Origin: Saprospiraceae bacterium
Lineage (GTDB): Bacteria; Bacteroidota; Bacteroidia; Chitinophagales; Saprospiraceae
DNA length: 64,000 nucleotides
Direction: 5' to 3'
Assembly (NCBI GenBank): GCA_021738725.1
Contig: JAIPBE010000005.1
Coordinates: 92,802 to 156,801, forward strand
Positions 3,737-64,000 of this stretch are shown one piece after another. A program made the position numbers and the translations under genes. Position 1 is the first letter of the stretch. Every line of letters begins with the position of its first letter. The notes beneath the pieces are model-generated. The model searched no databases. It saw only the letters and a list, made by a program, of their open reading frames with translations, and was not told the origin of the DNA.

Positions 3737-5029
3737 CTACTTCTGGCTGATCTGGATGCTGCGCCATAATTCAACCATGACCTCTCTCACAGACCCCAGT
3801 TTTTGCCTGAGGTCTGCATCGAGCTTTTGCCATTGCTTTGCCTGGCGAAATCGCTTCAACCATTCCCCGCTCCAGACGGACCATCCTGCTGAAATGGGAA
3901 ACAGGATCAGGAAAATCAACCCATATCTCCAGTTGACAGTACTGATCACTGCCGACCAGCCCATCCACCAAAAAGCCCAACCCATCATAATACTCCCCAA
4001 AAGGATGGAACTCTGAAATTCAATGATCCTCACGGTTCGTCGGGTGAGCCAACGTCCGAGCTGAACCGGGGGCCAGTGACATATATAAATGAGCCAATGG
4101 GAGAACAGGATCGGCATCCATACCAATTGGTCGACCATGGTTATTCGGGGTGACAGGGCCACCACTTCATCTTCTATTTGATTTTCTTCCAACTGAAGAA
4201 AGTAGGGTGTGAACTCCTCTTGAAGCCGTTCCTTGGTTAAAACGTTCAACTGATTCAACTTGACCATCGCTTCGTATTCAGCGTGCAATACCTGCGGATC
4301 GTGCTCGACAATGGGTAGGATCTTTCTGGTCCGGATTCGTACCAGTTGGAGAATCCATTCCGCCAACACTTCATCATCAGGGTTATCAATATGGACAACT
4401 CGTTTTTCCAGAGCAACCCGGATACGATCCGTGACCTTGCTCAGCGTCTGATTGGGCTGATCTTGAAAACCTTCCAGATACGGGGCCAGGGAAAACGGTT
4501 CCGCAAAATCAACCATGATCTCCTTTCTCGATCGCTCGGCATACGTGTAATTGATGCCCACTGGCTGGATCATCACATCCTTTAATTGGTATTCATCCAT
4601 GGCCCCCAATCCGATCCGGGCGGCACCTTTCTGAAGAGGGCGGAGTCGCTTTTCATGTTTCATTCGACCCTCCGCCATGATGAGAATAGCCCCTCCTTTC
4701 GACAAAATCCTTTTTGCGACAGAAAAGGATGCTTCGTTTTGCCTTAAAGCCGAAAACCCGTCATGAAAACGATAGATCGGAATGAGGTGGACCTGCCGTA
4801 GCAGCCATCGCACCAAAGGAGACATAAATACATCTCCACGCGCCATAAAGTGCAATTCTCTGGGACCAAAACATGCCAGAAAACAGGGCTCGACAAACGC
4901 AGTGGGATGATTTGCTGTAAAGATCAGAGGCGTGTCGCGTGGTATCTGGTCAAGACCCGTCAGATGGATCTTTCTGAAAAATGCCAGGAAGGCCCATCGG
5001 GTCACTGGTCGAAGAAGGGTGTACAACAT
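3737..5029 (-). CDS. Lysophospholipid acyltransferase family protein (PlsC-like)
   Basis: A 430-residue membrane-associated acyltransferase of the 1-acyl-glycerol-3-phosphate acyltransferase family. Motif I reads 'NHPTAFVEP', where relatives usually have NHxNAxxDP, so the catalytic Asp position appears to hold Glu. Motif III is 'MAEGRMKHEKRL', followed by the family's 'LQKGAARIGLG'. Residues from about 300 on carry at least two membrane segments ('VWMPILFSHWLIYICHWPP' and 'LIFLILFPISAGWSVWSG'). It probably acylates a glycerolipid or lysolipid at the inner membrane; the substrate is unknown. The gene stands alone, divergent from miaA. The Asp-to-Glu change deserves an alignment before activity is assumed. 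Confidence 0.85.
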   Translation of the reverse strand: MLYTLLRPVTRWAFLAFFRKIHLTGLDQIPRDTPLIFTANHPTAFVEPCFLACFGPRELHFMARGDVFMSPLVRWLLRQVHLIPIYRFHDGFSALRQNEASFSVAKRILSKGGAILIMAEGRMKHEKRLRPLQKGAARIGLGAMDEYQLKDVMIQPVGINYTYAERSRKEIMVDFAEPFSLAPYLEGFQDQPNQTLSKVTDRIRVALEKRVVHIDNPDDEVLAEWILQLVRIRTRKILPIVEHDPQVLHAEYEAMVKLNQLNVLTKERLQEEFTPYFLQLEENQIEDEVVALSPRITMVDQLVWMPILFSHWLIYICHWPPVQLGRWLTRRTVRIIEFQSSILLGSIMMGWAFWWMGWSAVISTVNWRYGLIFLILFPISAGWSVWSGEWLKRFRQAKQWQKLDADLRQKLGSVREVMVELWRSIQISQK

Positions 5030-5081
5030 GTGAAAAGGTCAACAGAATGGCAAGGTAAGGCTGGAATTCATAATCCAGGGC

Positions 5082-5089
5082 TACTTTTG
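5082..5089 (+). promoter_or_regulatory. Candidate -7 element for miaA
   Basis: TACTTTTG matches the Bacteroidota -7 consensus TAnnTTTG. No convincing -33 TTG is seen 19-21 nt upstream. The element ends only 4 nt before the miaA ATG, which would make the transcript nearly leaderless. Confidence 0.35.
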
Positions 5090-5093
5090 AAGG

Positions 5094-5999
5094 ATGGGAA
5101 CAGTGATTCTAATTGGTGGCCCTACAGCATCCGGGAAAAGCAAATTGGGCATGGACCTCGCCGAGCGACTGGGGAGTGTTATTGTATCCGCAGACAGCCG
5201 ACAAGTCTATCGGGGCATGGATATTGTCACGGCAAAGCCCTCCCAGGAAGAACAAGAGCGCGTCCCCCATTTCCTGATCGATATCCGGGACCCGAAGGAC
5301 ACCTATGATGTCGGACAGTTTGAAGCGGATGCCAACCAGTTGCTGGATCGCCTTTTGAAAACCTATCCTGTGGTCCTTGTTGTAGGCGGTACTGGATTAT
5401 ATCTGCGTGCTTTACGATTCGGGTTGGATCCTTTTCCCGCTGTGCCAAAATCTGTTCAGATGGATCTTCGGCATTTTTTTGAACGTGAAGGTTTGTCGGC
5501 CCTCCAGGATAGACTCCGACAGGCAGACCCGCCATACGCACAGGAGGTAGATCTTTCCAATCCTCAACGATTGATCCGTGCCATTGCCGTCAGTGAGTAT
5601 TCGGGGCGTCCATTTTCTTCCTTCCGTAGCCTGGCGTCCAAGCCCAGACCTAATCGGATCCTTCCAGTCTTGTTGGAGCCCCAACGAGGATGGCTGTATC
5701 AACGAACTGACCAACGTATTCTGGACATGATACAGGCCGGACTCGTTGAAGAAGCTCGTCAACTTTATCCAGATCGACATTTGGATGCCTTGAAAACAGT
5801 AGGTCTACAGGAGCTTTTTGCCTGGTTTTCTGGAGAATGTTCCTACGATGAAGCTATTGCTCTCTTCCAACAGAATACGCGACGGTATGCCAAACGGCAG
5901 CTGACCTGGTTTCGGAAAGAAACAGACTGGCATCGGTTTGATCCCGAATCCGAGCCGGACATCCTGGAGAAGGTTCTCACTTTGCTCGAAGAAGGGTAA
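5094..5999 (+). CDS. miaA: tRNA dimethylallyltransferase
   Basis: MiaA transfers a dimethylallyl group from DMAPP to N6 of A37 in tRNAs that read codons starting with U. The 301-residue protein has the P-loop 'GGPTASGKSKL' at residues 8-18 and the catalytic/substrate segment 'SADSRQVYRGMDIVTAKP' near residues 33-50. Length is normal for the family. The end of the gene overlaps the end of the convergent ArsC-like gene by 23 nt. One of the two tRNAs in this window, tRNA-Leu(CAA), is the kind of tRNA this enzyme modifies. Confidence 0.97.
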   Translation: MGTVILIGGPTASGKSKLGMDLAERLGSVIVSADSRQVYRGMDIVTAKPSQEEQERVPHFLIDIRDPKDTYDVGQFEADANQLLDRLLKTYPVVLVVGGTGLYLRALRFGLDPFPAVPKSVQMDLRHFFEREGLSALQDRLRQADPPYAQEVDLSNPQRLIRAIAVSEYSGRPFSSFRSLASKPRPNRILPVLLEPQRGWLYQRTDQRILDMIQAGLVEEARQLYPDRHLDALKTVGLQELFAWFSGECSYDEAIALFQQNTRRYAKRQLTWFRKETDWHRFDPESEPDILEKVLTLLEEG

Positions 6000-52740: not shown

Positions 52741-52824
52741 GCCGAAGTGGCGGAACTGGTAGACGCGCTGGACTCAAAATCCAGTGTAAGCAATTACGTG
52801 CGGGTTCGAGTCCCGCCTTCGGCA
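52741..52824 (+). tRNA. tRNA-Leu (anticodon CAA)
   Basis: A complete class II tRNA. The acceptor is GCCGAAG/CTTCGGC with discriminator A. The anticodon stem CTGGA/TCCAG encloses the loop CTCAAAA (anticodon CAA). A long variable arm GTAA-GCAA-TTAC and the T arm GCGGG-TTCGAGT-CCCGC complete it. CCA is not encoded, unlike tRNA-Glu in this window. Two decayed copies precede it. Confidence 0.97.
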
Positions 52825-52847
52825 CTCTTTATTTTTACCCTTATTAT

Positions 52848-54540: not shown

Positions 54541-54904
54541 AATATCCATACTTCTGTCACATAATCGAATTTTAGGTCCAACATTTGGAACTCTCCAGGC
54601 TTCGTATATAATCAAATTTATCTCGTTTTCATTCACAGAAAACAAGACCAAAGATTTACGAAAATGATGAATATAGCATGTCACAATATTCACATTTTAT
54701 GGACATTCCTCGTCTACCCTTTTGAAAAAGTGGCTCGTGACATTTACGATTCAGCCCATTATTTATAGAAGTTTCACACAATCTGACCCTGAATCGGTTG
54801 GATTTACCCTTGTTTACCGGGAACATCTTATGGTGAAAAGCACCCATCATAGCCGGTATATCGCTGTACCGCTCATGTTCTGAACCAGTGCTCCTAAAGA
54901 ATTG
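54541..54904 (+). other. Long AT-rich intergenic region upstream of the surface-protein gene
   Basis: About 360 nt without a credible gene; one 34-codon ORF from 54664 has no support. A hairpin-like dyad CGGTA-tatcgctg-TACCG (54854-54871) sits about 50 nt before the sigma-54-like element. The length and position would suit an enhancer-controlled promoter. Nothing else was recognised. Confidence 0.5.
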
Positions 54905-54919
54905 TGGCATACATCTTGC
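54905..54919 (+). promoter_or_regulatory. Sigma-54 (RpoN)-type promoter
   Basis: TGGCAT-ACATC-TTGC matches the -24/-12 consensus TGGCAY-N5-TTGC, with the GG and GC dinucleotides exactly 12 nt apart. Transcription would start near 54931, 28 nt before ATG 54959. No TAnnTTTG element is present in this region. It overlaps the longer track ORF (TTG 54902), which argues against that start. Confidence 0.65.
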
Positions 54920-54958
54920 GTTTGCCCGTTCAATAATAAGACTGAAATACCTTTTACT

Positions 54959-57900
54959 ATGAAGAGGATCCTGACAATTATAGGAATCATCGGTTTATGC
55001 TATTCCACTTCCTATACCCAGATCACGGGAACGGCTTTCCGAGATTACAACGGCAACGGAATCAAAGAAGGTGGCGAACCAGGTGTTGCAGACATTATCG
55101 TCAATTTCTATAGCAATGCAGCACTTCCGGCGAAAGATCAATTGGTCGGTACCGTCACTACGAATACCTCCGGAGCTTATTCCTATACACCACCCTCCTA
55201 CCCCATACGGGTAGAGTTTACGATCCCTTCCAGTGGAGCCTGTGATCTGATGGCCGGACAGGATTATCCGGCTGCTAACGGAGATACCTATGGGACTTCA
55301 GTCCAGTTACTTACAGGAGACGGAACAGCAAATTTCATTGTGAGCTATCCCGTGGATTTTGCCCTTGATGAAAACCCACCCGTTTATGTCCCCTGCTATA
55401 CAAATGGAGATCCTCTTGCGGGTGGAAATGCAGGTGAAGCGGATGCCCTGGTTTCCTTCCATTATATGGATTCCGGGTATGGCTCCAATTCCGGTCGTGG
55501 ACCAACCAATCCGGTGGGACCTGCTCACGGTGTACTGGCCATAACCAAGCAGATAGGGTCTGCCTACGGCGTCGCCTATTCTCGACAGTCTGACCTCATT
55601 TTCACATCAGCATTCATGAAGCGTCACTCCGGGTTCGGGCCTCTGGGTGGCGGTGGTATTTATGTTGTGGACCCAAACAATATAGATCTGGTAGGGAGTC
55701 TTGCTTTTATGGATTTCGACGCATTGGGTATTCCCACAAGTGATGAGATCGGCGCGTACACCTTCCCTACATCAAACAGTCAGGAATTTGTCAGTAATGT
55801 GATCGGTACGAATGCACTAAGAGGACTTCCCGCCACAAAATCGACCCCTAACAATGACCCCGCTGCATATACGCAAGCGGGCAAATTGTCATTTGGAGAT
55901 ATGGATATCTCAGAAGACGGGCGCTATCTATACATCGTCAATTTGTATGATCGCAAACTGTATAGCATTGATCTGGTAGATCCCTTCAATCCTACAGCAC
56001 CTACCCTCCTCGACGTAGGTACACGGGTCAAAGCATTTCCGATTCCCAATCCTTGTACAACCACTGAAAATGGAGAATATCGACCTTTCGCCCTGAAGAT
56101 CCGCCGTGGAAAGGTGTTTGTCGGTGTTACTTGCTCCGGAGAAGATGCAGCCGGTGCCACCGTTGGTACACTGGCAGATGTACTGGGCACAGTCTATGAA
56201 TTTGATATTGCGACGGAAACCTTTGATCCGAGTCCCAAACTGCAATTTGATTTCAACTATACACGAACAAAGAATTTTGCACCCTGGCGTTCTAGCTGGC
56301 TGTCCGGCAATTTCAATGAAATAGGGGCACCCATGATCAGTGATATTGAATTCGATGCCCAGGGCAATATGCTATTGGGTGTCCGTGACCGCCGAGGTGA
56401 TCAGTTTGGCTATCAAAACTATCCACCCGTCGGAACAACATTGTATAATGATGCCACTGTGGGTGAACTGTTGCGCGCTGTGCGTGATCCAAATGGAGCA
56501 TCCTGCAATGACTATACCATTCAATTCAACCCGGAGTATTACAATGATAACGGGGTGCACCAGGAAGAAACGCAGGGTGGATTGGTGGTCCATTATACAG
56601 CTGCCTTTGATGGTGTTTTAACTACGGTTCTTGACCCGATCGGTATTTGGTCTGGTGGAACCTGGTTGTATAACAATGCAACAGGCCAAAGGGCTAATGT
56701 GGGATACGAGATCTTCTATTCTGCGGCATCAGGTCAAGGTGCCTCGACTTTTGGTAAAGCCAATGGCCTGGGTGACCTCGAGGCCCAGGGTATCGTCCCT
56801 CCGATCGAGATCGGCAACCTAGTCTGGGAAGACACCGACCGGGACGGCATCCAGGACGGAGATGAACCAGGTATCGCAGGTGTTATGGTAGAATTGCTGG
56901 ATTCACTCGGCAATCTTATTGCCATGGATGTCACAGATAATGATGGCGGGTATTATTTCAACTTCGACAATGTAAATGCCCCTAGTGGACCGGATCCTTA
57001 TACGACCTATATGTTGCGGATCAAGCCGGCTCAGTTTGTCAATGGCGAAGGTCAGGGTGTTCTTGCCGGGTATCTCCTGACGCTGACCAATGAGGTCGGG
57101 AATGGTGCACTGGACCAAAGTGATAACGATGCTGCCCTTGTCGGAGGTGTCCCCAAGCTCACCTTTACGACAGGCGCTAATGGCCAGAACAATCACTCTT
57201 ACGATTTTGGCTTCACCCCTTGCGAAGTCACCACAGCTGGACTAGATCCAATTTCAATCCTGTGTAATGACGGTGGCACCCCTAATGGCCTGACAACAGA
57301 TGATTTCATCTCCTTTACACTCACTCCGGAAGGAATCCAAACACATAACCCCTACACCGTATCGGTGATAGGCGGCGGAACTACGATCACACCGACATCC
57401 GCTAATTTTGGGGTACCCACCAACTTCCAGCTCGGTGCAGGAAGTGCCGATGGTGCTACCACCTGGACGATCCGTGTGACTGACGGAGATGATCCCAATT
57501 GCTTCATTGAAGTACAGATCGGTCCGATCGACAATTGCTCAGAAAACTGTGATCTGGTCCTGAACCCAGAGGCCATTTGTCAATTGGGTGGTGATCTGTA
57601 TGATCTGGTCGTCAGCTATACTTATGTCAACGATCTGGACGATGACCTGACCATTATGCTGGGATCAGGTGAAATGCAAACAGTAGCCGCGCCCGGACCG
57701 AACGGAGCGGGTATGGTGACCTTTACAGGTTTGTCCAATTTGGGCATCAGCGATATCCCGGTTACCGGGGCATTTGCCAACAACGTATTCTGCAGTGCAG
57801 ATACGTCCTACGATTCCCCTGATTATTGTTGCTTCATGGCCATTGATACCATTGTCGTTTCTGATTGCTTCCTGGGCACCTATAGCGTGGATCTCACGCT

Positions 57901-58717
57901 GACGTTTGCCGGGGTCCCCAATCAACTGGTGGTGGACATCAATAATCAATTGTTCAACATCACCCCATCCAGCCCATTCGGTACAGAGACTTTTACCATC
58001 TCTGGTCTCGATTGCAAATTGAGTACAGGCTATACGGTGGATGTTCTGGTTTACAATATCGATCTGCCGGTTTGTAATGACAGCCGAACAAACTACTACG
58101 AGATCCCCAAGCTGATCGTAGACCTGGGCGACCTGCCGATCAACTATCCGGTCACCTTTAACAATAATGGAGCTTACCACACCATGACCCCGCTACTTTA
58201 TCTGGGGAACTGTGTGGATAATGAGATCGAAGGTCAACCCAATCAGCAGGCTGGAACCATTATCAATGGAGATGACCACTCACCGGGAGAAAGTACGACC
58301 TACGGTAACTGTACAGTACCAGATGATGATGAGGATGGATTACTCTATACGCCAATGATTGCACCTGGTGCACCCTTGAGCCTCTGTATTAATCTTCTTC
58401 AGGATTTTGATGAAGATGCTTATCTGACTGCCTGGATCGACTGGAATGCAAATGGCTTCCTCGAAGCAGGAGAGCAAGTGATCAATCAGACCGTCACTGC
58501 AAATACAGGTAGTTATAGCAATTGCTTTACGGTGAACGTGCCGACTGATGCTGTTCTGGATACAGAGCTGGCAGTCAGAGTACGGTTGAATTTGAATGGA
58601 CCGGCTCTTCCCACCGGCCTTGCCATTGGTGGAGAGGTGGAGGATTATATGCTGGTATTAAGCTGCAATCCGGCGATTTGCCTGCCTGCATCTGTCACCC
58701 GGAAGAACCAGTTCTGA
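54959..58717 (+). CDS. Large secreted SdrD B-like / GEVED-domain surface protein
   Basis: About 1252 residues from ATG 54959 (M20 of the track ORF). The signal peptide is '[21 protein letters not shown]'. An SdrD B-like domain ('[20 protein letters not shown]') starts the mature part. A long beta-rich domain of about 440 residues follows ('[18 protein letters not shown]'), then a second SdrD B-like unit ('[20 protein letters not shown]') with Ca-binding-type Asp loops. Cys-rich Ig-like repeats come next, and a final GEVED-type domain ('[12 protein letters not shown]', 'GGEVEDYML'). The end '[17 protein letters not shown]' has no classical T9SS tail. A surface or adhesive role is inferred. It is followed on the same strand by the DUF11-repeat gene. 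Confidence 0.87.
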
Positions 58718-59105
58718 TCAACCCATACGTCCTGGCAAATGAGCCGGTATGACGGAATAGATATGATTAAGGGTTCATCAAACCTGTCACATTTCTCGAC
58801 ATCATGCACAATATGACAGCGGGAATACACACAGATTTGCACTCCCTTTTGCAAACCCTGGATGTCGATGTGGTCGTATCCAGAACAAAACAGATTATTC
58901 ACCAAAATCGGTAGCCTTCGGCCTCCGATTCAGGAGAAAACCTATATTCTTTTAGATGTCATTTATTAATATAATTGATTTCTTAATGAGTAGTCAAATG
59001 ATGTATAAACGTAACAGCAAGACCTGTTGCACTCCAACGCGATGGTCCAAACCATCCGTTGGGAAAACACCTCTACACATTGCTAATTTTTTGATGATGG
59101 TACCC
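58718..59105 (+). other. Intergenic / leader region before the DUF11 protein
   Basis: About 390 nt. The ORF track extends the next gene into it (to 58956), but those codons are low-complexity and lie before the evident signal peptide. An imperfect hairpin 'aatcggtagccttcggcctccgatt' (about 58908-58932) has no T run. No clear promoter of either type was found. Confidence 0.4.
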
Positions 59106-62100
59106 ATGTTTACTTCCAATCGTGTAAAAAATCAACTGTTCAGCCGCACCTTGTGGGTTTTGTTGAGTGGTTTATTTCTGCTTGGCTTTTCCAGCCTGAG
59201 CGCCCAGGTCGATGTCTCATTGACCAGTTGGGCCAATAAGGTCATTGTCGCTAAGGGGGAATCATTCAATGTGCGCGTTGTGGCGCACAATGACGCCCAA
59301 ACGGCTAATACTGGCCTTCAAGTCATGGTGACTCCTCCCTTAGGGATCTCACAGACGGGTGTTGTGGCTCCTGCAGGAACAAACTTCTCGGCGGGCTTGT
59401 GGAATATTGGTTCTGCTATGACCGCTGGCGTGGATTCTCTGGTCCTGACCTTTACGTATACAGCAGATACAGAAGGTCCGCATGTGATCGTGTCAGAGGT
59501 CTATGCGCAGAATGAACTGGATCTGGATTCAGCACCAAATGATGGTGCCATCAAGCAGGATGACTATGCCACTGCCTTTGTGTCCGTGCCCCTTCGTTTT
59601 TGTGCTGCTACCGGAGATACCATCACTCTGCATGCACCTTTGGGATTGACAGATTATCAGTGGTATCTGGACCAGGGATTTGGACCTCTTCCAATAGCTG
59701 GTGCCACATCACCGGACTACGATGCATTCAGGCCTGGAACGTATACATACCAGGCCATAGATCCTGTTTCTCATTGCCCGGCTCTCGGTTGTTGCCCGAT
59801 CGTGTTGGATGAAAAGTGTATGGATCTGGCATTGTACAAGAAATTAGCCAACGGCCAACCAGAAATGGTTGAACCCGGAGATATTGTCACGTTTACCATC
59901 ACCGTGATCAATCAAGGGACCCTCACTGCTGATAACATTGTTCTTTCAGATTATATCCCGGCGCAAATGAGCTTTGTCGCCCAGGCCGGCTGGTCTGCAG
60001 GTGGAGGGATCGCCACGCGAACACTCGAAGCGAATGATGAGCTCCCCGCAGGCGGGTTACTTCCGGGTGCCAGTGTCAATGTTGACATCCAGCTTCGGGT
60101 CAATAGCCCGATGGCGAACAATACCATCATTACCAACTTCGCGGAGATCTCTTCTGCTACTGACACCGATGGTGTCAGTCAGCCAGATGTGGATTCCACT
60201 CCGGATAACATCAATACAGATGTATTCCTGGTCGATAATGATGTGGACGGAAACGGTAAGGCTAATGGCGATGAAGATGATCATGACCCTGCTTCTGTTA
60301 CTGTCGAGCCTTTCGACCTGGCGTTATACAAGCAGTTAGCCAATGGTCAGTCAGCTATGGTCGAACCCGGTGATGTGGTCACCTTTACGGTCACTGTTGT
60401 CAACCAGGGTTTGATCACGGCGGACAATATCGACCTCGCCGATTATTTCGACCCAGCGCAACTTTCATTATCCGATGCCGATTGGACGGCGGATGGCGTT
60501 GGTCGCATCTCTCTGATCAACACATTGGGCCCATTGACTCCCGGTGCCAGCACCTCAGTTGACGTCACCTTCACGGTGGCCTCTCCTCTTCCCAGTAACA
60601 CCGTGATCGTCAACTGGGCAGAGATCAGCGCTGCAACAGATGATGCCAACAACCCACAGGAGGACCTGGATTCTGACCCGGATAACAATCCGGGCGATCT
60701 CTTCCTGGTGGATGACGAGATCAACGGAAATGGTAAGGCTGGAGGTGATGAAGATGATCATGACAAAGCTGAACTGATCGTTGAGCCATTCGACCTGGCC
60801 CTTTACAAGACACTTGCGGTCGGCCAATCCGAATTAGTAGAGGCAAGCGACAAGGTCACATTTACCATTTATGTGGTCAACCAGGGGCTGATTGCTGCAG
60901 GTAATATTCAGTTGGTGGACTATGTCCCGACAGATATGACATTTGTTCCAGCGGACAACCCGCTGTGGAATCCGGATGCTACGATCACCCTTCCGGGCAT
61001 CCTGGCTCCAGGTGAGACCACCAGTATGGATATCGTCCTGACGGTGAACAGCCCACTGGCTGCCAATACGGTCATCATCAATAATGCCGAGATCAAAGGA
61101 GCGACCGACAACCTGGGGAATCCTCAGGAGGACATCGATTCTGATCCGGACATGAGCAATGACGATCTGTTCCTGGTAGATAATGAGATCAACGGCAACG
61201 GGAAAGTCGGCGGTGATGAGGATGATCACGATCCTGCTTCTGTAACCGTAGAACCCTTCGATCTGGCACTGTACAAGCAGTTGGCCAATGGCCAAAATAG
61301 CCAGGTCAAACCGGGTGATGATGTGTCCTATACAATTACCATTGTCAATCAGGGGCTTGTCGATGCAGGCAATATCAAGATCGTAGAGTATGTGCCTGCT
61401 GGTATGAGTTTCTCTTTGGCGAACAATCCGGCATGGTCTGCCTCAGGTGCCAATTATGTCACCACCTTACCAGGGGTGCTGGCTGCAGGCGCACAAACCA
61501 CGATCAATGTGGTCCTGACAGTAAACAACCCGATCGCGGCGAACACCACTCTGACAAACTTTGCAGAGATCGCCGCGGCCACCGATGACCTTGGCAACCC
61601 ACAGGTAGACATCGATTCCAATCCGGATGAGATGAATGATGACCTCCTGTTGGTGGATGATGATATCAATGGCGACGGCAAAAACAATGGTGACGAAGAT
61701 GATCACGACAAAGCAGAAGTAGTAGTCGATCCATTTGACATGGCCTTGTACAAGGCGTTGGCCAATGGCCAGGATGCCATGGTCGAGCCAGGCGACAATG
61801 TCACCTTTACCATTACAGTTGTCAACCAGGGAGCGATCACCGCGACGGATGTCGAAGTGACTGATTATGTTCCAGCTGGCTTCACGTTTGAGGCCGGCAG
61901 TAACAGCCCTATGTGGTCATATACAGCTGGCAAAGCCAAGCGGACGATCAGCGGACCTATTGCTCCCGGAGCATCCTCTTCCATTGATATCGTCTTACGC
62001 GTCAACAATCCACAGGCATCCGGTACAGTCATAACAAACTGGGCAGAGATCTCCGATGCCAAAGACCTGAATGGTGTATCTCAGCCGGATATTGATTCAG

Positions 62101-63929
62101 ATGCAGATGATGCCAACAACGATACATATTTGACAGATAACGACATCAACGGCAATGGAAAAATGAATGGAGATGAGGATGATCATGATCCTGCTTCAGT
62201 CATTGTAAAGCCATTTGACCTTGCCCTTGTCAAAGAACTGGCCATTGGCCAACCCGCACTTGTCGCCGCTGGTGACAAAGTGACCTATAGCATTACGGTA
62301 TTCAACCAGGGCATGATCGCCGCTGGCAATATTGTGCTGGCAGATTATGTACCCGGCGATATGACCTTTGATCTGCTGGATAATCCAGGATGGGCGCTAG
62401 CCGGATCGACTGCTACGTTCCCTGTCCCAGGAACATTGGCCCCAGGCGCATCAGTATCCGCGAATGTGGTGTTGACCGTCAACAGTCCATTAGCCTCCAA
62501 TACAGTCATTACCAACTGGGCAGAGATTGCTGCCGCTACAGATGATCAGGGGAATACACAGGTGGATATTGACTCAGATCCGGACCAATCCAATAATGAC
62601 AAATATTTACTGGACAATGATATTTCCGGCAACGGAAAAGGAATGGAAGATGAGGATGATCACGATCCTGCGTCTGTCACAGTCCTGCCTTTCGACCTGG
62701 CATTATACAAGCAGTTGGGTGCCGGTCAAAACAGCAATGTCAAGCCGGGTGACAAGGTCACATATACGATCTCAGTAGTCAACCAGGGACTGGTGGCTGC
62801 CGCCAACATTCAGGTGGTTGATTATCTGCCCACTGAGATGAGTTTCATCCCAGCCGACAATCTGACCTGGTCGGCCAATGGCAACAAACCATTTACCTTC
62901 CTGGGTGTCACATTGAACCCGGGCGAGACCTACAGTGTCGATCTGATCCTGACAGTCAATGCCCCTCTGCCTGCAAATACCAAGATCCGCAATTTCGCTG
63001 AGATCGCTGCTGCGACCGATGATTCTGGCAACCCACAGGTGGATCTGGATTCGAAGCCAGACTTCAACAATGACGACCTCGTCCTCCAGAACGATTACAT
63101 CGATGGCGACGGAAAGAATGGCGGAGATGAAGACGATCATGACTACGAAGATGTCATGGTGGATCCCTTCGACCTTGCCCTGGTCAAGCAGCTGGCCCCC
63201 GGTCAAGCTGAACAAGTCGCTCCAGGTGAATTGGTCAACTTCAGAATTACGGTCACCAACCAGGGTCTTATTCCAGCTGACAATATTCAACTGGTCGATT
63301 ATGTGCCTGGTACGATGACCTATGAGCAGGCTCAGAATCCGCTCTGGAGCATCGTGGCTGGAAAGCCAATGACAACGCTGAGTGCCGTCCTCAATCCGGG
63401 CCAAAGTGTTACTCGTGACATTGTTTTGCGCGTGAACAGCCCGCTCGCTGCCAACACCATTATCACCAACTGGGCGGAGATCTCTTCGGCCATAGATGAT
63501 AATGGCAATGCACAGATCGATTTGGATTCCGATCCAGATGCGGTGAATAACGATAAATTCCTCGTAGATGATTATATCGACGGAGACGGCAAGAATGGTG
63601 GTGATGAAGACGATCACGACAAAGCAGTTGTGATCACTAAGCCTTTCGACCTCGCGTTGGACAAAGTCCTCAGTGGTGGCCAGTCTGCTTCTGTAGAGCC
63701 CGGTGATAAGGTGTCATTCGACATTCGCGTATACAATCAGGGCATGGTCTCAGCCAATAATATCGAACTGACCGATTATGTGCCTGCCGGTATGACATAT
63801 GTCCAGGCAGACAACCCGCAATGGGCGTTGGTGGCTGGAAAGCCAACTACGACCATTACTACTCATATGTTTGTAAAAGTAGAGAATTTGGTTCATCTTG
63901 ATCAGGATGAATCGAAGCCGGGCAGGTAA
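59106..63929 (+). CDS. Giant DUF11-repeat secreted protein (last repeat broken)
   Basis: From ATG 59106 ('MFTSNRVKNQLFSRTLWVLL', good signal peptide ending 'SLSAQ') about 1607 residues; Met codons at 58956 and 58998 would add an N-terminal extension. An N-terminal DUF11-like domain and an Ig-like Cys-containing segment lead to nine tandem repeats of about 159 residues. Each begins 'DLALYK' and contains 'GDxVTFTITVVNQG', 'DYVPAGMTF', 'NTVITNWAEI' and an Asp-rich linker 'DxDINGNGKxNGDEDDHD'. DUF11 units are stalk-like beta domains, and the Asp loops probably bind Ca2+. The ninth repeat stops matching after about 70 residues and the frame ends in an unrelated 'FVKVENLVHLDQDESKPGR'. No secretion tail is present, so the gene appears truncated or misassembled. 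Confidence 0.85.
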   Translation: MFTSNRVKNQLFSRTLWVLLSGLFLLGFSSLSAQVDVSLTSWANKVIVAKGESFNVRVVAHNDAQTANTGLQVMVTPPLGISQTGVVAPAGTNFSAGLWNIGSAMTAGVDSLVLTFTYTADTEGPHVIVSEVYAQNELDLDSAPNDGAIKQDDYATAFVSVPLRFCAATGDTITLHAPLGLTDYQWYLDQGFGPLPIAGATSPDYDAFRPGTYTYQAIDPVSHCPALGCCPIVLDEKCMDLALYKKLANGQPEMVEPGDIVTFTITVINQGTLTADNIVLSDYIPAQMSFVAQAGWSAGGGIATRTLEANDELPAGGLLPGASVNVDIQLRVNSPMANNTIITNFAEISSATDTDGVSQPDVDSTPDNINTDVFLVDNDVDGNGKANGDEDDHDPASVTVEPFDLALYKQLANGQSAMVEPGDVVTFTVTVVNQGLITADNIDLADYFDPAQLSLSDADWTADGVGRISLINTLGPLTPGASTSVDVTFTVASPLPSNTVIVNWAEISAATDDANNPQEDLDSDPDNNPGDLFLVDDEINGNGKAGGDEDDHDKAELIVEPFDLALYKTLAVGQSELVEASDKVTFTIYVVNQGLIAAGNIQLVDYVPTDMTFVPADNPLWNPDATITLPGILAPGETTSMDIVLTVNSPLAANTVIINNAEIKGATDNLGNPQEDIDSDPDMSNDDLFLVDNEINGNGKVGGDEDDHDPASVTVEPFDLALYKQLANGQNSQVKPGDDVSYTITIVNQGLVDAGNIKIVEYVPAGMSFSLANNPAWSASGANYVTTLPGVLAAGAQTTINVVLTVNNPIAANTTLTNFAEIAAATDDLGNPQVDIDSNPDEMNDDLLLVDDDINGDGKNNGDEDDHDKAEVVVDPFDMALYKALANGQDAMVEPGDNVTFTITVVNQGAITATDVEVTDYVPAGFTFEAGSNSPMWSYTAGKAKRTISGPIAPGASSSIDIVLRVNNPQASGTVITNWAEISDAKDLNGVSQPDIDSDADDANNDTYLTDNDINGNGKMNGDEDDHDPASVIVKPFDLALVKELAIGQPALVAAGDKVTYSITVFNQGMIAAGNIVLADYVPGDMTFDLLDNPGWALAGSTATFPVPGTLAPGASVSANVVLTVNSPLASNTVITNWAEIAAATDDQGNTQVDIDSDPDQSNNDKYLLDNDISGNGKGMEDEDDHDPASVTVLPFDLALYKQLGAGQNSNVKPGDKVTYTISVVNQGLVAAANIQVVDYLPTEMSFIPADNLTWSANGNKPFTFLGVTLNPGETYSVDLILTVNAPLPANTKIRNFAEIAAATDDSGNPQVDLDSKPDFNNDDLVLQNDYIDGDGKNGGDEDDHDYEDVMVDPFDLALVKQLAPGQAEQVAPGELVNFRITVTNQGLIPADNIQLVDYVPGTMTYEQAQNPLWSIVAGKPMTTLSAVLNPGQSVTRDIVLRVNSPLAANTIITNWAEISSAIDDNGNAQIDLDSDPDAVNNDKFLVDDYIDGDGKNGGDEDDHDKAVVITKPFDLALDKVLSGGQSASVEPGDKVSFDIRVYNQGMVSANNIELTDYVPAGMTYVQADNPQWALVAGKPTTTITTHMFVKVENLVHLDQDESKPGR
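59822..63858 (+). repeat. Nine tandem coding repeats of about 477 bp (DUF11)
   Basis: Repeat starts, marked by the DLALYK-type codons, lie near 59822, 60316, 60792, 61258, 61736, 62217, 62695, 63171 and 63648. Spacing is 466-494 bp. The ninth unit is incomplete. Confidence 0.9.
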
Positions 63930-64000
63930 ACACATTCTACTCCTAAATACGGTAAAGATACCGATATACAAGTTGAGGTAAGACCTGCCTGGTTCTCTCT
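63930..64000 (+). other. Unassigned open frame at the window end
   Basis: After the TAA of the DUF11 ORF the same frame continues open to the end of the window ('STPKYGKDTDIQVEVRPAWF'). It has no start codon in view. It faintly recalls the N-terminus of ApaG proteins, but 23 residues are too few to call. Confidence 0.2.

What the first reader, a model, noticed from the sequence alone, without database searches (positions are those of the whole stretch)
63650..64000. Ninth DUF11 repeat breaks off abruptly
Eight repeats of about 477 bp are complete. The ninth agrees with the others to about 63858, then continues in unrelated sequence to a stop 71 nt later, and the protein lacks any T9SS tail. 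Either a rearrangement truncated a larger surface protein, or the assembly collapsed or joined wrongly inside a long repeat.
Basis: seen in the sequence. Interest (0 to 1): 0.6.

Follow-up and report, generated by a model that had tools for sequence, protein, structure and literature searches.

The report
Jumping gene splits DUF11 surface-protein gene
The ninth DUF11 repeat stops because an IS110-family jumping element sits there, and the assembly ends 139 bases into that multi-copy element, so this is a real but ordinary insertion seen at a contig end.

Summary
The break is real. The ninth repeat runs 63648-63861. From 63862 to the window's end the sequence is the left end of an IS110-family insertion sequence, and 64000 is also the last base of contig C15. 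The same 136-139 bp lies at five other contig ends of this genome, and the element's right end lies at six more: six left and six right ends, always at contig ends. An intact 97%-identical copy in a congener carries an IS110 transposase. The last 22 residues of the ORF are read from the element. The left end includes the 5' stem-loop and target-binding loop of a bridge RNA; its right guide matches the flanking target 7/7 here and in three divergent relatives. Distant homologues continue past DUF11 and one ends in a T9SS tail, so this protein is truncated. Synteny pairs five of six insertions, all at gene boundaries. The right end left over abuts RluA, not DUF11, at a site that is a near-perfect empty target in a congener. 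So the DUF11 tail either lay on a short contig between two element copies and was dropped, or was deleted between them; read data are needed. Known biology, low novelty.

The parts
58956..63929 (+). ORF of 1657 aa: interrupted DUF11 repeat protein gene (a start near 59107 is likelier, just before a signal-peptide-like stretch)
   Evidence: DUF11 E=5e-108 over 10 stretches; no T9SS domain
59823..63647 (+). eight complete DUF11 repeats of 468-492 nt
63648..63861 (+). ninth DUF11 repeat, first 214 nt only
63862..64000 (+). left end of the IS110-family element, cut off by the contig end; core CT at 63862-63863
   Evidence: 99% identical at five other contig ends; 97% to the intact element in G002
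63862..63929 (+). element-encoded end of the ORF: 22 residues and the stop codon
63890..63913 (+). 5' stem-loop of the predicted bridge RNA
   Evidence: consensus fold of six related left ends
63917..63993 (+). target-binding stem-loop of the predicted bridge RNA
   Evidence: consensus stem with compensatory changes; positions
63936..63944 (+). predicted left target guide, TCTACTC-CT
63971..63977 (+). predicted right target guide, AGTTG-AG, complementary to the target CT-CAACT
   Evidence: 7/7 match here and in three divergent elements

Best explanation
An IS110-family (IS110 group, RNA-guided) insertion sequence lies in the ninth DUF11 repeat of a secreted repeat protein, left end first. Reading into it gives 22 foreign residues and a stop, so the protein loses the rest of repeat 9 and everything after it, including the expected T9SS sorting domain. 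Junction and truncation are shown; loss of secretion or anchoring is inferred. Because the genome carries at least six near-identical copies, the assembly could not cross any of them, and the contig ends 139 nt into the element. The element presumably arrived by its recombinase, with a bridge RNA pairing to a site of the form ACTC-CT-CAACT (inferred from guide and flank sequences).
For: The same left end at six contig ends with different flanks; six right ends, also only at contig ends. Intact copy in G002 with an IS110 transposase. Bridge-RNA fold with compensatory changes and guide-to-target match 7/7 in four elements. Homologues continue past DUF11, one to a T9SS domain. Five of the six insertions pair by synteny across the element.
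Against: The element body and its transposase are not in the held contigs of this genome, so the family assignment rests on the ends and on the G002 copy. No right end with a DUF11 continuation was found. The DUF11 half-site has a mismatch next to the core, and is the only one of the six inside a coding repeat.
Confidence: 0.93

Rival explanations
1. Fate of the tail, version A: a second element copy lies between the DUF11 tail and RluA (or elsewhere). The tail sits on a contig with a right end at one side and a left end at the other, which was too short to be kept (under about 5 kb) or was not binned.
For: 51 sampled contigs are all 5,023 bp or longer, four of them 5.0-5.6 kb, which suggests a cut-off near 5 kb. 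C41's right end sits at a place where G002 has an uninterrupted near-perfect target, GAACTC-CT-CAACC, as expected of a separate ordinary insertion. No extra event is needed.
Against: In G035 and G005 the gene runs on for about 4.9 kb after the last repeat, so a tail of like size would be at or above the cut-off.
Confidence: 0.6
2. Fate of the tail, version B: two same-oriented element copies, one in repeat 9 and one beside RluA, recombined (homologously, or through the recombinase). The stretch between them, with the DUF11 tail, was lost, leaving one element flanked by DUF11 and RluA.
For: After five pairs are made by synteny, the DUF11 left end and the C41 right end are the only ones left. 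Six left and six right ends balance. The order DUF11(+), element, RluA(-) is consistent with such a deletion.
Against: The pairing is by elimination only and no congener shows the ancestral order. Dropped short contigs explain the same counts.
Confidence: 0.3
3. Misassembly: the DUF11 array was wrongly joined to an unrelated element end.
For: The region is repetitive and at a contig end.
Against: DUF11 repeats share only about 60-70% DNA identity, too little to confuse an assembler. The join falls exactly at the element's CT core. The other five left ends join different unique flanks.
Confidence: 0.04
4. Natural gene end: the protein really ends here and the 22 last residues are its own.
For: The frame is open to a stop 68 nt after the junction.
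Against: The same nucleotides, with the same stop, occur after five unrelated flanks, and homologues continue.
Confidence: 0.02

Closest known systems
IS110-family insertion sequences, IS110 group (type IS621; PMC11208160, PMC11208158)
   Same: DEDD and Transposase_20 domains; long non-coding left end with a bridge-RNA-like fold; CT core; donor and target guides that match donor and target; insertion at short specific sites
   Different: Other guide and target (ACTC-CT-CAACT). Transposase known only from the congener's copy. No experiment on function.
DUF11 (TIGR01451 / PF01345) repeat surface proteins of Bacteroidota secreted by T9SS
   Same: Tandem DUF11 repeats after a signal-peptide-like N-terminus
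   Different: Cut in repeat 9; lacks the downstream domains and the T9SS tail seen in the G035 homologue

Membership tests
[quoted passage not shown]
   In the intact G002 copy: E=1.8e-25 and 4.7e-18; NCBIfam NF033542 182.7 bits against a cut-off of 140. Not testable in the own genome, whose element body is absent.
IS110 family | Catalytic serine in the C-terminal domain | not tested
   Residue not mapped
IS110 family | Site-specific insertion around a short core | tested here: met
   CT core at both ends; target motif near ACTC-CT-CAACT at the sites
IS110 family | Scarless excision through a circular form | not testable with these tools
   Needs an experiment or reads across a circle junction
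IS110 group (against IS1111 group) | Left non-coding end longer than the right one and carrying the bridge RNA | tested here: met
   About 250 nt against about 100 nt in L034; fold and guides in the left end
IS110 bridge RNA | Target-binding loop with guides matching the target | tested here: met
   Right guide 7/7 in four elements, sum 28 of 28 and best of 24 assignments; left guide ACTC matched fully at four of six own sites
IS110 bridge RNA | Donor-binding loop with guides matching the donor | tested here: inconclusive
   ACAGTAC and TATGAG are seen by eye in the second stem-loop of L034; no statistic was computed, and this part is beyond the window's end
T9SS-secreted DUF11 protein | DUF11 repeats (TIGR01451 / PF01345) | tested here: met
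T9SS-secreted DUF11 protein | C-terminal T9SS sorting domain (TIGR04183) | tested here: not met
   Absent from the window ORF, present in homologue G035; the insertion explains its absence

The most novel reading that the evidence does not exclude
The bridge-RNA recombinase itself deleted the 3' half of the DUF11 gene, by recombining a half-matching site in repeat 9 with the left junction of a copy beside RluA: a natural RNA-guided deletion that reshaped a surface protein.
Probability: 0.07. Interest if true: 0.45.

Novelty: new member of a known kind. Interest (0 to 1): 0.2.

Why it matters
It explains an odd gene end without new biology, and warns that annotation of this ORF (22 foreign residues, no tail) is misleading. 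Twelve contig ends of this genome are explained by one element, and five contig pairs can now be ordered. The junctions also give a small natural data set of bridge-RNA guides against genomic targets.

Tried and rejected
A natural gene end and an assembly collapse in the DUF11 array were rejected. The left end was first thought to be an IS200-like hairpin; the transposase of the intact copy showed IS110. A first placing of the core three bases upstream was dropped after comparison with divergent elements. The idea that the target motif is an abundant genomic repeat was rejected: ACTCCTCAACTC occurs 4 times in the genome, with 3 for the control. Contig C88, an open HYR-type gene with a T9SS-like end, was considered as the missing tail; it has neither a right end nor DUF11 at its start. 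No match to the left end was found in the phage or plasmid records or in the genome-contig collection. Rfam 15 gave no match.

Full report
OBSERVATION. The repeats are as described: eight complete DUF11 repeats, then 214 nt of a ninth from 63648 to 63861. Identity to repeats 2-8 falls from 49-61% to chance level at that point. The ORF stops at 63929. The true junction is after 63861.

WHAT FOLLOWS THE JUNCTION. The window is C15:92802-156801 of a 4.18-Mb, 109-contig genome and ends exactly at the contig end. The last 139 nt recur at five other contig ends: the start of C15, the end of C8, and ends of C51, C35 and C47. The six flanks differ up to a common border CT-CATATG. Among 100 relatives, congener G002 holds an intact copy 97% identical at this end, and G034 a diverged one. 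G002's copy (L034, about 4096-5526) encodes a 358-aa protein with PF01548 and PF02371 that passes NCBIfam's IS110 RNA-guided transposase model. With that whole element as query, the own genome shows six right ends (C41, C58, C14, C100, C78, C107), also only at contig ends. Six left and six right ends, with no body in the held contigs, is what a collapsed multi-copy element gives in a short-read assembly. All contigs sampled (51) are 5,023 bp or longer, so the 1.4-kb body was probably filtered out.

HOW THE ELEMENT CHOOSES SITES. Divergent relatives share the donor ACAGTAC-CT-CATATG (or nearly so) while their flanks differ. Six left ends fold into a 5' stem-loop and two further stem-loops, with compensatory changes at 15 of 44 pairs. 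This is the layout of IS110 bridge RNAs (PMC11208160). In four elements the right target guide matches the genomic flank after the core at 7 of 7 positions, and no other assignment of guides to targets does as well. The left guide reads ACTC-CT. Own left flanks match ACTC at four of six sites and CTC at one; the DUF11 flank reads ACTA, with a mismatch beside the core. Rfam 15 has no model that matches. Target choice by the RNA is inferred from sequence, not shown by experiment.

PAIRING THE ENDS. Neighbouring genes in congeners join C51 with C58, C47 with C107, and C8 with C78, C35 with C14, and C15-start with C100. G002 carries what appears to be the same insertion at the C15-start/C100 locus (its C111 and C239). 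These five sites lie between genes or at gene edges. That leaves the DUF11 left end and the C41 right end. C41 continues into the 3' end of RluA, not into DUF11. At that very place G002 has an uninterrupted GAACTC-CT-CAACC, a near-perfect target. So C41 looks like a separate ordinary insertion, and the left junction of that copy and the right junction of the DUF11 copy are both missing. Either they sit on a dropped contig that carries the DUF11 tail, or the stretch between two same-oriented copies was deleted. The data held here cannot decide, and the DUF11-C41 link rests on elimination.

IS THE PROTEIN TRUNCATED? The window ORF has DUF11 repeats and no T9SS domain. The best distant homologues, G035 and G005, continue for about 1,600 aa after the last DUF11 repeat. 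G035 ends in a T9SS type A sorting domain, and the end of G005 looks alike. The four congeners show no counterpart of this gene at the thresholds used, so the test 'homologues in other strains ending at the same residue' could not be made within the species. No DUF11 repeat of this kind was found elsewhere in the own genome. A search of the own genome with the tail of the G035 homologue found many other T9SS and HYR-type proteins, none next to a right end.

VERDICT. Ordinary biology, with a small open question about the missing tail.

Noticed in passing
54902-58717: The neighbouring 1271-aa SdrD-like protein ends in a GEVED-type stretch and a short tail ([12 protein letters not shown]), and NCBIfam finds no T9SS sorting domain in it. 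It may be truncated or use another sorting signal; no continuation was seen in the other two frames as far as 59150.
   Followed up: partly
52741-52825: tRNA-Leu (caa); in congener G002 the like place (L057, about 5266-5384) is followed at once by a phage-type integrase gene, so this tRNA looks like an integration site there.
   Followed up: no
L009 and L052; L035 and L056: The same IS110 insertion upstream of the DnaE-like gene seems to be shared by this genome and congener G002, that is, older than their split.
   Followed up: partly
L156:2-4573: Contig C88 begins inside a gene of near-identical HYR-type repeats that ends in a T9SS-like domain; HYR repeats seem to be another cause of contig breaks in this genome.
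   Followed up: no
L134:3-13886: G005 holds a DUF11 protein gene with an open frame of 7,272 aa and at least 15 repeats of this kind.
   Followed up: no
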